This document shows positions 5,119 to 62,266 of a DNA stretch of 64,000 nt, piece after piece (position 1 is the stretch's first letter; each line of letters begins with the position of its first letter). The stretch is from Halobacillus yeomjeoni. Its GTDB lineage: Bacteria; Bacillota; Bacilli; Bacillales; Halobacillaceae. Location: contig NZ_JAIVAI010000001.1 in assembly GCF_020171525.1 (NCBI RefSeq), positions 496,001 to 560,000 on the forward strand, read 5' to 3'. Position numbers and translations under genes: made by a program. Below the pieces are notes generated by a model. The model saw only the letters and a list, made by a program, of their open reading frames with translations. It searched no databases and was not told where the DNA came from.

Positions 5119-6125
5119 ATCATTTGAAATTTGTCTTTGGTAACGGGGGATACGGTTTCTTTCATAGTAGTTGTTTTGGTTTTTGATTGATAATGTTCAA
5201 AAGGGCCTTTCAATCCATAGGCAATACTATTCACAGCTAAAATGGCTAAAGCGAATGCTGTTACAGGTGCAAGGATCATCCATGGAAATGGAATCGCGTA
5301 TTCAAAATTTTGGCTGATTAAACCTGACCATTCATTTGACATGGAAAAATGTCGGTAAATCGGCTCCCCGGTCTCGATGTCGATATCCATCAAACGTGTC
5401 TCTGTACCGCCAATAAAAATATTAAGCAATCCAAGGTGAGCAAAAATGATTAAGGCCTGCCCCACTTGCTGCACGAACATGAGGAGTAACTTCGGTTTTA
5501 GAAAAGGAGAAACGTGTTTTCTATAAAGGTGGAAGTGATTGGCACCCATCAGCTTTGATGTGATGACATAATCCTTTTTATATATGAGGTTCAATTCATT
5601 TCTTACATACATTGATAAAACAGGTGCACTGACCAAAATTAATATGATGACAGGGTAGATGATCTTAGTCGTCAGATCATAACTCCAACTGAATGTAAGG
5701 ACTACAGGAGCAATCAATACATAGGTCAGGATAGTGGTAGGAGTGTAATGAAACGCATCCGAAAGATTATTTATTCTTTTATTAAATTGAGAGGGCATTA
5801 AAAAAAGAAGGTAACCGCCTAAAAAAGACAAGATGACTCTTCCGAAGGCGATGATCAATGATAATCCAATCGTATACTTTGCCCCATCAATAATTTTCAA
5901 GAAAAAACTATTACCATCAATATCACTCCCCAGCGGATATTGAACCGAAGGAGGAAATGGAGCAATGGCAATGAGCTGGTTGTTTTCATCAAATAATAAT
6001 TTTTCAGGAGGAGTTCGATCTTGTTCAATTACAAATCCGAAAATCATACTAGCTGAAAGGAGAGAAATGAGAAACATCAATCCAATCGCAATCAGCAGCC
6101 TATTTGAAAACCAGAATTTTTTCAT
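5100..6125 (-). CDS. ABC transporter permease, OppC/DppC-like
   Basis: A 341-residue inner-membrane permease with a long N-terminal membrane anchor, an extracytoplasmic stretch (PPEKLLFDENN...YPLGSDIDG) and five further membrane segments. The EAA-type cytoplasmic loop is visible as SKLMGANHFHLYRKHVSPFL, the family pattern for contacting an ATPase. The start at 6125 is set by AGGAAGGAG and overlaps the upstream permease stop as ATGA. With its partner it forms an OppBC-type heterodimer, normally for peptides or nickel. No ATPase or binding-protein gene adjoins. The final codons run into the terminator stem. Confidence 0.85.
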   Translation of the reverse strand: MKKFWFSNRLLIAIGLMFLISLLSASMIFGFVIEQDRTPPEKLLFDENNQLIAIAPFPPSVQYPLGSDIDGNSFFLKIIDGAKYTIGLSLIIAFGRVILSFLGGYLLFLMPSQFNKRINNLSDAFHYTPTTILTYVLIAPVVLTFSWSYDLTTKIIYPVIILILVSAPVLSMYVRNELNLIYKKDYVITSKLMGANHFHLYRKHVSPFLKPKLLLMFVQQVGQALIIFAHLGLLNIFIGGTETRLMDIDIETGEPIYRHFSMSNEWSGLISQNFEYAIPFPWMILAPVTAFALAILAVNSIAYGLKGPFEHYQSKTKTTTMKETVSPVTKDKFQMIKKISS

Positions 6126-7072
6126 AAAGTACTCCTTCCTGAAGGAAAGCTGCGGTGAATCGTCCATTGCACAATTGTGAATATGAGGAAAAATGGAATG
6201 AATACCATAAACAGGCTGATCGTCAATATTTCTGGATTTAAAACACTGTGCTTATAGACGAACGTCATGAAACCATTGATATTAAAGATGATTTCTAACA
6301 TTAGAAGATTAGCAAGTAAGAAAGTGAAAATACTTCTAAAGTGGTTAAAAAACGTGAGGATGGAATTTCTTAAGATGTGGATGATCAGGATGTATGATTT
6401 ACTAAAGCCTTTACTAAAAGCAAACTCGACATATTGCCGGCTTTCTTCTTCTTCGAAAGCCAGTAACAATAATTTATTCATATAGATAGCAGGCAGTAAA
6501 GAAAGAATAAATATGGGGACGACGACGGGATCACCATCAGCGGTACTCGTAATATCGAACACTAATAAACCAGTTTTTTTATATGTCCAAATTATAGAAA
6601 TTTGAATAATTAAAATGATGAAAATGTCCGGGAGAGATTCTAAGAAAAAAAGAATGATTTTAGGAAGTGCCCTGTATTTTCTCGAGAAATACATAACGAG
6701 GAAAGTCATAACGAGAGCCAATAGCAAACCAAAGAACAAGCCGAGAATCATATAGGTCATAGACTTTAAAAATAACTCCCATAATTCAGGGAAAATCGGC
6801 CGGTAGACTCCTCTATAATAATATTCAGCGTCGCCACCGGTGAAAAGGAGTTTAATCGTTTGGTAGATATGTAGAGTGTATTCTTGAAAGTTGAATACGA
6901 TGGTGTCATATAAAAATAAAGTGTTATCCAAGGTTTTCATATGTATCATTTTTAAAACCTCTACTTGAGCTTTCATATTAAACAGTAGATAAGGAAGCGA
7001 GCCGATCAGCAAAATACTAATCGAAGTCAGTAAAAAATGTAGAAACGTTTCTCTTTTCGTAAATCCATCCAT
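6122..7072 (-). CDS. ABC transporter permease, OppB/DppB-like
   Basis: A 316-residue membrane protein with an N-terminal membrane helix, a long outside segment and about five more helices. The cytoplasmic loop QYVEFAFSKGFSKSYILIIHIL is a divergent EAA motif. The start at 7072 follows GAGGGGAAAGC; a longer upstream open frame has no ribosome site and reads as untranslated sequence. It precedes and overlaps the OppC-like gene by 4 nt. Divergence from typical OppB and the lack of ATPase suggest a shared or unusual energiser, which is inferred. Confidence 0.82.
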   Translation of the reverse strand: MDGFTKRETFLHFLLTSISILLIGSLPYLLFNMKAQVEVLKMIHMKTLDNTLFLYDTIVFNFQEYTLHIYQTIKLLFTGGDAEYYYRGVYRPIFPELWELFLKSMTYMILGLFFGLLLALVMTFLVMYFSRKYRALPKIILFFLESLPDIFIILIIQISIIWTYKKTGLLVFDITSTADGDPVVVPIFILSLLPAIYMNKLLLLAFEEEESRQYVEFAFSKGFSKSYILIIHILRNSILTFFNHFRSIFTFLLANLLMLEIIFNINGFMTFVYKHSVLNPEILTISLFMVFIPFFLIFTIVQWTIHRSFPSGRSTL

Positions 7073-60877: not shown

Positions 60878-60929
60878 TTTGCCAATTTTCTTAATTTAAT
60901 GTATCTTTAAGGTGGAAGTTCATAAAAGG

Positions 60930-61100
60930 ATTCAGGTGCCATTTCGGCTTGATAGGGAATCTGGTGAAATGCCAGAACTGTCCTCGCAACTGTATGTGCA
61001 GACGAAAAGATAGTTCCACTGTGCAACGAAGCACGGGAAGGAATCTTAGTAGAGTGACGCACAAGTCAGTAGACCTGCCTGGTCCGATGTTTCAATGCTT
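60930..61100 (+). promoter_or_regulatory. Cobalamin (AdoCbl) riboswitch
   Basis: Class features in order: GGTGCC start, AGGGAATCTGGTGAAATGCC, AGAACTGTCCTCGCAACTGT, CCACTGTGCAACGAAGCAC, GGGAAGG, then GTCAGTAGACCTGCCTGG. This is the conserved B12-box core. A terminator 65 nt downstream makes transcriptional attenuation by cobalamin the likely mode. It controls the lipoprotein and ECF genes that follow. Confidence 0.93.
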
Positions 61101-61165
61101 CGGGGATTGAGCGTTTGAGACAACCGATCGGTTTACGTTGAACATATGCCCATCTGGTTTGTCTT

Positions 61166-61198
61166 AAGCTCGCCCTATTTCATGGGTGGGCTTTTTTT
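61166..61198 (+). terminator. Riboswitch expression-platform terminator
   Basis: AAGCTCGCCC pairs with GGGTGGGCTT (G-U allowed), followed by TTTTT. Upstream AGACAA-CC and GGTTTGTCT can pair with each other and may be part of the switching structure. Confidence 0.8.
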
Positions 61199-61278
61199 GA
61201 TGGTCACATAGCATAACCGTAGTTGTCCTTACGTCCTTTCTAGTAAGCAGAATCTTGTAAGAAAGGATGGGAATCGTC

Positions 61279-61686
61279 ATGAAGAAGATTTATGTTTTAC
61301 TGTTGTCCGTATTATTAGCAGGAGGGGTATTGTCCGGGTGCGGAACAGTGCAGCAAGATGGCAGCCAGGCAAGTGCCAGCCAACAAGAGGAAAAAGAAGA
61401 GATTTCTGTTGTAGTGAAAATCACTAAACAAAATGGAGAAGAGAAACTTGTGGACCAGGAAATTTCTGTTGAAGAAGGATCGACATTAATGGAACTGATG
61501 AAAGAGAACTTCGATGTTGAAGAATCAGAAGGATTCATCAATGAAATTGAAGGTATATCTATGAACCAAGAGAAGAAGATGGCTTGGATGTACACCATCA
61601 ATGGAGAAGAAGCAATGGTCGGAGCAAATGAATATCAACTCGAGCAGGGTGATGTGATCGTTTTTGATTACCACTCTTGGGAGTGA
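61279..61686 (+). CDS. DUF4430 lipoprotein, candidate cobalamin-capturing protein
   Basis: A 135-residue lipoprotein. Signal peptide with lipobox LSGC (cysteine about 21), an acidic linker, then one DUF4430 domain (about 45-134): SVEEGSTLMELMKENFDVEE, FINEIEGISMNQEKKMAWMY, TINGEEAMVGANEYQLEQGD and a final WE. DUF4430 is related to the C-terminal domain of transcobalamin/intrinsic factor. Riboswitch control and the adjacent ECF S component suggest that it holds cobalamin at the cell surface. That role is inferred. ATG 61279 follows GAAAGGATGGG. Confidence 0.8.
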   Translation: MKKIYVLLLSVLLAGGVLSGCGTVQQDGSQASASQQEEKEEISVVVKITKQNGEEKLVDQEISVEEGSTLMELMKENFDVEESEGFINEIEGISMNQEKKMAWMYTINGEEAMVGANEYQLEQGDVIVFDYHSWE

Positions 61687-61692
61687 TGGTTG

Positions 61693-62220
61693 ATGAATAC
61701 GTATAAAATTACATTGATAGCTATGCTGGCAGCCCTTGCGATTGCGGGCCGAATCGCTTTATCCCAAATTCCAAACGTCCAGCCAGTGACTGCCATTATT
61801 ATTTTGACCGGTTTTTGGCTGGGCCCGGTTGCAGGTATTCTCATGGCTGTCCTTACAACATTCGTATCGAACATGTTGTTGGGGATGGGAATATGGACAA
61901 TTTGGCAGATCATTGCGTGGGCCCTTATTGGCTTGGGAGCAGGTATTTTAGGGAAGTATTGGTCGAGACTGCCTGTATGGGGGCTCAGTGTGTATGGCTT
62001 TGTAAGTGGATTATTTTTTGGACTGGTCATATCATTGACGATGCGGTCTTTTGGACAGCCTTTTTTGGCGTATTATCTGGCAGGGCTGCCATTCGATATC
62101 AATCATGCACTTTCAAACTCAGCCTTCATCTTTGTACTGGCTACAGTCCTCGGACCTTTATTCCAGCAATATAAAAAAAGAAATGGTCTCAAGCCGGCAA
62201 TCAGAAGTGCAGATGCATAA
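61693..62220 (+). CDS. ECF transporter S component (probable cobalamin)
   Basis: A 175-residue membrane protein with five or six helices. The SQIPNVQPVTAIIILTGFWL and MGIWTIWQIIAWALIGLGAG stretches are typical of ECF S subunits of the cobalamin/precursor type. It needs the shared EcfA-EcfA'-EcfT module encoded elsewhere. ATG 61693, 6 nt after the lipoprotein stop. Riboswitch control makes cobalamin the best substrate guess. Confidence 0.82.
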   Translation: MNTYKITLIAMLAALAIAGRIALSQIPNVQPVTAIIILTGFWLGPVAGILMAVLTTFVSNMLLGMGIWTIWQIIAWALIGLGAGILGKYWSRLPVWGLSVYGFVSGLFFGLVISLTMRSFGQPFLAYYLAGLPFDINHALSNSAFIFVLATVLGPLFQQYKKRNGLKPAIRSADA

Positions 62221-62231
62221 AAGAATTCAAC

Positions 62232-62266
62232 AAAAGGTCTCTTCAATTTTGAAGAGACCTTTTTTG
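62232..62266 (+). terminator. Terminator of the cobalamin unit
   Basis: AAAAGGTCTCTTCAA pairs with TTGAAGAGACCTTTT, followed by T residues. Confidence 0.93.

What the first reader, a model, noticed from the sequence alone, without database searches (positions are those of the whole stretch)
60930..62266. Riboswitch-controlled DUF4430 lipoprotein plus ECF S component: candidate two-part B12 capture system
A complete cobalamin riboswitch with terminator precedes just two genes: a surface lipoprotein made of one DUF4430 domain (related to the C-terminal domain of vertebrate transcobalamin and intrinsic factor) and an ECF S component. ECF importers normally need no external binding protein, so a lipoprotein lid would be an unusual design. 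The riboswitch, lipobox and gene order are seen directly; the transcobalamin relation is family knowledge; joint B12 capture is inference.
Basis: partly seen in the sequence, partly recalled or inferred. Interest (0 to 1): 0.78.

Follow-up and report, generated by a model that had tools for sequence, protein, structure and literature searches.

The report
Riboswitch-controlled two-gene vitamin B12 importer
A Halobacillus-like bacterium carries a vitamin B12-sensing RNA switch in front of two genes, a small surface protein related to the end part of the human B12 carrier transcobalamin and a known type of B12 membrane importer, and this pairing turns out to be widespread, which suggests that the importer normally works with an outside helper.

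Summary
A full cobalamin riboswitch (60917-61096) with a terminator-like hairpin precedes two close genes: a 135-aa DUF4430 lipoprotein (61279-61686) and a 175-aa ECF S component (61693-62220). The S component is a homologue of CbrT, the B12 S component shown by experiment (6FNP, E 7e-25). A profile of 68 such lipoproteins finds transcobalamin-1 (3e-4) and intrinsic factor (0.008) in the PDB. The genome has a B12 enzyme (IcmF), no CbiC, a shared ECF module and one RF00174 riboswitch, this one.

The pairing is no oddity. DUF4430 lies beside CbrT in 78 of 79 named loci (64 of 79 with a B12 riboswitch); of 398 Bacillota genomes 118 have both, 8 DUF4430 only, 3 CbrT only. CbrT loci come in two kinds: surface proteins with a transcobalamin-like toroid plus DUF4430, and DUF4430 alone ('lid only', as here); the CbrT tree splits along this line. 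That such proteins scavenge B12 with ECF-type genes was predicted in 2007; I found the CbrT pairing and the lid-only form in no paper listed by my searches. Most likely the lipoprotein caps or captures B12 for CbrT. Binding is untested and no structure could be computed.

The parts
60917..61096 (+). cobalamin riboswitch aptamer (RF00174)
   Evidence: cmscan 104.8 bits, model 1-189; only RF00174 match in the genome
61097..61200 (+). expression platform, with terminator-like hairpin 61166-61193 and T tract
61279..61686 (+). DUF4430 (transcobalamin C-terminal-like, SLBB) lipoprotein, 135 aa, lipobox LSGC, single domain at residues 67-132
   Evidence: Pfam PF14478 E 2.3e-22; profile hits to transcobalamin-1 and intrinsic factor
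61693..62220 (+). CbrT-type ECF S component, 175 aa
   Evidence: phmmer to 6fnp_A E 6.9e-25; profile A2 to 6fnp_A E 1.9e-27 and to no other PDB sequence at E<=1
62232..62263 (+). terminator-like hairpin after the second gene

Best explanation
A B12-repressed uptake cassette. When cobalamin is plentiful the riboswitch folds and the terminator stops transcription (inferred from the family). When it is scarce both genes are made. CbrT sits in the membrane, binds cobalamin or cobinamide from outside and is driven by the genome's shared ECF module (EcfA1-EcfA2-EcfT). The DUF4430 lipoprotein, tethered on the outer face of the membrane, is a working partner of CbrT: like the C-terminal half of transcobalamin it contacts the corrin, and because no toroid half is encoded beside it, it either caps B12 over the CbrT pocket or captures B12 and hands it to CbrT. 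Shown here by sequence: riboswitch, gene pair, CbrT homology, transcobalamin relation, conserved linkage, a B12 enzyme without the CbiC step of synthesis. Inferred: direction of regulation, B12 contact by the lipoprotein, and the cap or hand-over step.
For: CbrT homology to the protein shown to bind CN-Cbl at 9 nM and to transport it (PMC5997447 passages). Riboswitch, and the order riboswitch-lipoprotein-CbrT in 20 of 20 genus loci that have DUF4430 (riboswitch 19 of 19 plus the window). 78 of 79 named CbrT loci have DUF4430 within 110 bases on the same strand; 64 of 79 have a cobalamin-class riboswitch upstream. 118 of 398 Bacillota genomes have both, 8 only DUF4430, 3 only CbrT. 105 of 120 CbrT neighbourhoods (up to 20 kb) hold DUF4430 genes, 189 of 189 on the CbrT strand. 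nrdJ-DUF4430-S-adenosyltransferase in Lactobacillus intestinalis and nrdJ-adenosyltransferase-DUF4430-S in L. plantarum pLp900-2. IcmF present, CbiC absent in 22 of 22 genus genomes, ECF module present. In the two genus genomes without DUF4430 a riboswitch precedes a BtuF-like binding-protein gene instead. The CbrT tree splits by extracellular architecture.
Against: ECF-CbrT of L. delbrueckii supports growth on 1 nM B12 in E. coli and transports it in liposomes as purified ECF-CbrT, with no partner described (PMC5997447 passages), so the lipoprotein cannot be strictly needed. No binding data or structure for any DUF4430 lipoprotein was obtained. 15 of 120 CbrT neighbourhoods lack DUF4430 (seven of them are contigs of 3-10 kb; three genomes lack it altogether). 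15 of 79 named loci show no riboswitch. Some DUF4430 genes stand away from CbrT (Priestia plasmid). The linkage statistics are not corrected for shared ancestry.
Confidence: 0.68

Rival explanations
1. CbrT alone captures and imports B12; the lipoprotein is an independent B12 store or buffer on the cell surface (or keeps CbrT folded) and makes no ternary complex. (The rivals are not all exclusive of each other.)
For: CbrT alone has 9 nM affinity and ECF-CbrT works without a partner in vitro (PMC5997447 passages). In the large clostridial proteins the DUF4430 parts sit on chains with S-layer homology domains, 42 of 50 scanned, so they are anchored in the wall rather than on the membrane (inferred).
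Against: The near one-to-one co-occurrence, the close spacing and the split of the CbrT tree by extracellular architecture speak for a tight partnership.
Confidence: 0.3
2. The lipoprotein selects among corrinoids or handles a B12 form (cobinamide, analogues, axial-ligand exchange) before uptake, rather than raising capture.
For: CbrT accepts cobinamide and several upper-ligand forms (PMC5997447 passages).
Against: No direct evidence; the protein is one DUF4430 domain with no known catalytic domain.
Confidence: 0.12
3. The lipoprotein binds something other than B12 (for example a metal; the solved relative 3u7z is titled putative metal binding protein) and its place next to CbrT is incidental.
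For: 3u7z is the best PDB match (E 4.6e-6) and is so named by its depositors. The Priestia plasmid copy and a few others lie away from B12 genes.
Against: The CbrT linkage and the B12 riboswitches in front of the lipoprotein gene.
Confidence: 0.06

Closest known systems
ECF-CbrT, the group II ECF B12 transporter of Lactobacillus delbrueckii (Santos et al. 2018, PMC5997447; passages read)
   Same: S component homologous over nearly its full length (residues 4-167, E 7e-25); shared ECF module in the genome. The published cluster nrdJ-cbrS-cbrT-pduO has the same order as nrdJ-DUF4430-S-adenosyltransferase of L. intestinalis, so cbrS is probably a DUF4430 gene (inference; I did not see the L. delbrueckii sequence).
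   Different: The published work used CbrT and the ECF module; here the lipoprotein gene comes first, under a B12 riboswitch.
[quoted passage not shown] 2007, PMC1796856; Pfam DUF4430)
   Same: Same domain family; that paper predicts that secreted bacterial members scavenge B12 with CbiO/CbiQ-like genes, mentions stand-alone forms, and names a protein of 'Oceanobacterium' iheyensis.
   Different: The S component CbrT and riboswitches do not appear in what I read (abstract, twelve passages, first part of section 7, reviewer report 1). The toroid-free lipoprotein paired with CbrT and a distant, shared ECF module is the variant here.
Transcobalamin / intrinsic factor / haptocorrin of animals
   Same: C-terminal half is homologous (profile E 3e-4 to transcobalamin-1, 0.008 to intrinsic factor, 0.5 to transcobalamin-2).
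   Different: No toroid half found here; membrane-tethered; works with a membrane importer.
BtuG-type surface lipoproteins of Bacteroides and BtuF-BtuCD
   Same: Surface or periplasmic B12 capture ahead of an importer (recalled; PMC6143338 seen in a search listing only).
   Different: Another binding-protein and importer class; in two genus genomes without DUF4430 a riboswitch precedes a binding protein of the BtuF class.

Membership tests
Cobalamin riboswitch (RF00174) | full aptamer above the curated score, upstream of a B12-related gene | tested here: met
   104.8 bits vs 31.5, model 1-189
Cobalamin riboswitch (RF00174) | ligand-dependent control | not testable with these tools
   needs in-line probing or a reporter
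CbrT S components | sequence closer to 6FNP CbrT than to other solved S components | tested here: met
   6fnp_A is the only PDB match of the profile at E<=1; of 5 PF12822 matches in the genome only this one matches profile A2 at E<=1e-6
CbrT S components | ECF module in the genome | tested here: met
   EcfA1 and EcfA2 above curated cut-offs in L368; T component PF02361 187 bits, above cut-off, at the same place, though TIGR02454 is below its cut-off
CbrT S components | binds and transports cobalamin | not testable with these tools
   shown for the L. delbrueckii homologue (PMC5997447 passages)
DUF4430 / transcobalamin-like SLBB clade | PF14478 above gathering score | tested here: met
   79.7 vs 23.8 bits; all 68 members of A3 match at E<=0.001
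[quoted passage not shown]
   profile match to transcobalamin-1, intrinsic factor and 3u7z; structure prediction failed
Transcobalamin proper (two halves) | alpha/alpha toroid half fused or encoded beside it | tested here: not met
   no toroid match in the window, in the 3-kb genus loci or in the 79 named loci; the rest of the genome was not searched for it
Lipoprotein | signal peptide with lipobox and Cys | tested here: met
   LSGC with Cys21 (by eye); Cys21 column conserved in at least 90% of 68 rows; no signal-peptide program was run

The most novel reading that the evidence does not exclude
Transcobalamin split between two proteins: in the lid-only systems the DUF4430 lipoprotein closes over cobalamin seated in the outward-facing pocket of CbrT, so the S component takes the place of the toroid. 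ECF-CbrT would then be an ECF importer with a dedicated extracellular partner, and the CbrT studied so far lacked a natural subunit (CbrS).
Probability: 0.35. Interest if true: 0.8.

Novelty: new variant of a known kind. Interest (0 to 1): 0.57.

Why it matters
The survey says that the B12 member of this class nearly always travels with one, of the same family as the animal B12 carriers, in one of two forms. It suggests a function for a large part of a domain of unknown function, offers an identity for the unnamed neighbour (cbrS) in the CbrT literature, and gives a small two-protein system in which the origin of transcobalamin and intrinsic factor can be tested at the bench.

Tried and rejected
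No fold search was therefore possible, and the fold rests on sequence profiles.

The single-sequence search of the lipoprotein against the PDB gave only a chance match at E 2.3; the genus-only profile gave transcobalamin-1 at E 0.29, not significant; the wider profile A3 is. A search with one large clostridial protein, and with the profile of 50, found S-layer and squalene-cyclase-like toroid structures; transcobalamin was not in either list (one search shows its best 60).

A first riboswitch pattern found 1 of 19 known cases and was dropped; the second found 19 of 19 and none in the reversed sequences of 3.36 Mb, but it missed 23 riboswitches that cmscan found in the 38 pattern-negative named loci, so pattern counts are lower bounds. 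One of the 23 (L150, 31.6 bits) only just reaches the gathering score of 31.5.

B12 enzymes as a predictor of the cassette: all 22 genus genomes have B12-binding domains, including the two without DUF4430, so this does not separate them. The MetH domain PF02965 is absent from the own genome.

Other vitamins: rejected because the S component matches CbrT and no other solved S component, and because E. faecium's adjacent 'membrane protein' is also CbrT-family (hhalign E 4.5e-19). Divergent S-like neighbours of DUF4430 in G143, G193, G217, G329, G398 match CbrT weakly or not at all; their substrate is open.

Pooled DUF4430 counts: 306 PF14478 matches in 126 genomes (column summed), against 189 ORFs with 215 domain hits in 120 neighbourhoods, come from different detectors and are not given as an exact fraction.

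Full report
What is there. The window carries, between ResB/cytochrome c assembly/two-component genes and a dehydrogenase E1 gene, a cobalamin riboswitch at 60917-61096 (RF00174, 104.8 bits), a terminator-like hairpin at 61166-61193, a lipoprotein gene at 61279-61686, an S-component gene at 61693-62220 and a second terminator-like hairpin at 62232-62263. The lipoprotein has 135 aa, a lipobox ending at Cys21, an acidic linker (by eye) and one DUF4430 domain (PF14478). The nearest named relatives of its S component are from Halobacillus.

Which S component. A single-sequence search against the PDB gives 6fnp_A at E 6.9e-25 over residues 4-167; a profile of 20 genus sequences (A2) gives 6fnp_A at 1.9e-27 and nothing else at E<=1. 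6FNP is ECF-CbrT of Lactobacillus delbrueckii, shown to bind CN-Cbl (9 nM) and cobinamide (36 nM) and to transport them (PMC5997447, passages read). Of five PF12822 matches in the own genome at E<=0.01 only the window's is found by A2 at E<=1e-6. The genome has EcfA1, EcfA2 and a T component together on another contig, and a second T-like gene on contig 1; none is beside CbrT, so CbrT most likely uses a shared module.

Is DUF4430 transcobalamin-like. With the single sequence: nothing significant. With 20 genus sequences (A1): transcobalamin-1 first, E 0.29. With 68 lipoproteins, the window's and 67 from the named CbrT loci (A3; 10 of the 77 named lipoproteins other than L161's missing one were left out as near-copies or poor starts): 3u7z (4.6e-6; by its locus tag from Ruminococcus gnavus, recalled), transcobalamin-1 (3.2e-4), intrinsic factor (0.0077), transcobalamin-2 (0.5). 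[quoted passage not shown] abstract, twelve passages, first of two parts of section 7, and reviewer report 1 read). That paper already predicted that these secreted proteins scavenge B12 together with CbiO- and CbiQ-like genes.

Does the organism need B12. It has IcmF, the B12-dependent isobutyryl-CoA mutase (2004 bits, above the curated cut-off), and CarH-like B12-binding proteins (below cut-off). CbiC of the biosynthetic pathway is absent from 22 of 22 genus genomes, while the control rang in 7 of 14 genomes; other steps of the pathway were not searched. The window's riboswitch is the only RF00174 match in its genome.

Genus. DUF4430 is present in 20 of 22 genomes; in all 20 loci CbrT follows at once and a cobalamin riboswitch precedes (19 of 19 others, plus the window). 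The two genomes without DUF4430 (G008, G011; CbrT was not searched there) have three riboswitches each; one in each lies beside a periplasmic binding protein gene of the BtuF class (PF01497), followed by a FecCD permease in G011 (scanned) and a like frame in G008 (by eye). Another genus member with the cassette, G010, has such a cluster too (L357, by eye only).

Named relatives. 79 loci encoding CbrT relatives were fetched (the scan uses three peptide patterns and keeps the best 80 of 97, so it leans to close relatives). DUF4430 lies within 110 bases on the same strand in 78 of 79; the exception is L161. In three streptococcal loci it follows CbrT instead of preceding it (L153, L155, L156). 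A riboswitch stands upstream in 64 of 79: 41 by pattern, and among the 38 pattern-negative loci by cmscan 10 of 12, 9 of 12 (one only just over the cut-off), 4 of 12 and 0 of 2. The 15 without are five Enterococcus, three Streptococcus, two Lactobacillaceae, one each of Virgibacillus, Oceanobacillus, Amphibacillus and a record named Roseburia, and an archaeal bin.

Phylum. In 398 genomes drawn evenly from the phylum with completeness 90 or more asked for, 126 have DUF4430 and 121 have CbrT at E<=1e-6; both 118, only DUF4430 8, only CbrT 3 (G100, G177, G271); Fisher P 6e-87, not corrected for ancestry. Neighbourhoods of up to 20 kb around the best CbrT of the 120 genomes other than the window's were taken. 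DUF4430 genes lie in 105 of 120, 189 of 189 of them on the CbrT strand. Of the 15 without, seven are contigs of 3-10 kb. Only 26 of 120 show the strict riboswitch pattern upstream on the CbrT strand, but cmscan found a riboswitch in 5 of 6 pattern-negative loci tested (L182, L194, L199, L200, L236 yes; L281 no).

Two architectures. In many loci of the sample the order is large surface protein, smaller DUF4430 protein, T component, fused ATPases, CbrT (seen in L182; 77 of 120 loci hold both a DUF4430 protein of 450 aa or more and a smaller one). Of 84 large DUF4430 proteins (450 aa or more) I scanned 50 (chose them at random within the size limit): DUF4430 in 48, SLH in 42, squalene-cyclase C-terminal in 16 and prenyltransferase toroid models in 11. 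A more sensitive toroid profile made from these finds a toroid protein in 90 of 120 phylum loci, fused to DUF4430 in 69, but in 0 of 79 named loci, in none of the genus loci (3 kb each) and not in the window. The profile was built from part of the same phylum loci, so the count of 90 leans on itself; the zeros do not. So one form has both halves of transcobalamin, and the form in the window has the lid half only.

CbrT follows the architecture. In a tree of 189 different CbrT domains (quick method; rows under 120 aa and exact copies dropped) one branch with SH-aLRT 100 holds all 80 toroid rows with 11 rows without DUF4430 and 3 lid-only ones; 93 of 96 lid-only rows lie outside it. Oscillospiraceae lid-only loci (L148, L151, L159, L164) fall outside, and two loci of family f7 of the window's own class with toroids (L198, L239) fall inside, so the split is not simply taxonomy. 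The tree is quick, drawn from the midpoint and warned of meeting long branches. I read it as support for functional coupling of CbrT with what stands outside.

Exceptions, told as fully. Eight genomes have DUF4430 without CbrT at the cut-off. In G193, G329 and G398 a membrane protein beside it matches CbrT weakly (E 2e-5, 2e-4, 3e-6 in a small set), in G143 and G217 a similar protein does not (hhalign for G193 5e-4 and G143 3e-3); G409 and G198 are cut by contig ends, G198 with a riboswitch pattern upstream; G289 has DUF4430 among other surface proteins. None of the other seven shows the riboswitch pattern near DUF4430. A Priestia plasmid has a lone DUF4430 gene away from annotated B12 genes (one of five such records read). 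About a third of DUF4430 matches in the sample lie outside the neighbourhoods taken and were not examined.

Link to the literature. Lactobacillus intestinalis has nrdJ, DUF4430, S component, adenosyltransferase in that order, the order given for L. delbrueckii as nrdJ-cbrS-cbrT-pduO (PMC5997447). cbrS occurs once in that text. CbrS is thus probably a DUF4430 protein (inference). Searches: DUF4430 gave 6 papers, with cobalamin 2; ECF transporter, cobalamin, S-component, lipoprotein 4; transcobalamin, ECF transporter, riboswitch 1; CbrT, cobalamin, ECF 15; a six-term search 2; cbrS with cbrT 1; transcobalamin-like with bacteria 3; transcobalamin with ECF transporter 4; another six-term search 2. 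No title or abstract start in these listings names a CbrT-DUF4430 pairing, but I looked into six of the papers only (PMC4350170, PMC2667541, PMC5997447, PMC6593275, PMC1796856, PMC6722938; passages, and for PMC1796856 the parts named above), and the library lacks most subscription journals, among them the 2009 ECF paper. In L. plantarum pMF1298-5 the authors name the ECF genes CbrV, CbrU, CbrT (PMC6722938 passage); a DUF4430 gene lies two genes after CbrT there.

How it most likely works. The lipoprotein is a dedicated outside partner of CbrT. Because a toroid is missing nearby, the lid must meet B12 either alone or on CbrT. I favour capping or hand-over at CbrT (novel case, 0.35 for the strict split-transcobalamin form). 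Against a strict need stands the activity of ECF-CbrT without a partner. No binding or structural evidence could be produced here.

Verdict. Real, correctly described, of general rather than exceptional kind; partly foreseen in 2007; the CbrT pairing at this scale and the lid-only form are what seems new.

Noticed in passing
L197, L208, L219, L231, L249, L252, L258, L261, L262, L264, L267, L270, L272, L273: CbrT domain in open frames of 800-1059 aa; one (L197) was scanned and is two ABC ATPases fused to CbrT in one chain.
   Followed up: partly
L363, L364 (plasmids of L. plantarum Lp900 and L. intestinalis); L165, L168: B12-dependent ribonucleotide reductase, DUF4430 and CbrT-like genes, mostly with an adenosyltransferase, travel together on plasmids of lactic acid bacteria and enterococci.
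   Followed up: partly
L138 (record titled Roseburia sp. 1XD42-34): Its CbrT groups with Virgibacillus chiguensis (SH-aLRT 100), so the record may be a misnamed Bacillaceae assembly.
   Followed up: no
L162 (MAG: Euryarchaeota archaeon NP84): A CbrT relative with a DUF4430 frame 27 bases away in an archaeal bin.
   Followed up: no
L344, L345, L346, L349, L350: DUF4430 proteins next to S-like membrane proteins only weakly or not similar to CbrT; L349 has a metF-like frame (by eye) just after. Possible second substrate class.
   Followed up: partly
L367:705-1499 and 1450-2106; L361:6261-7184: CarH-like B12-binding proteins in the own genome, one next to a YtvA-like light-receptor gene, all below curated cut-offs.
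   Followed up: no
L175:4605-5363 and 5350-6759: A DUF4430 gene followed by a separate toroid gene: the two transcobalamin halves as two genes.
   Followed up: partly
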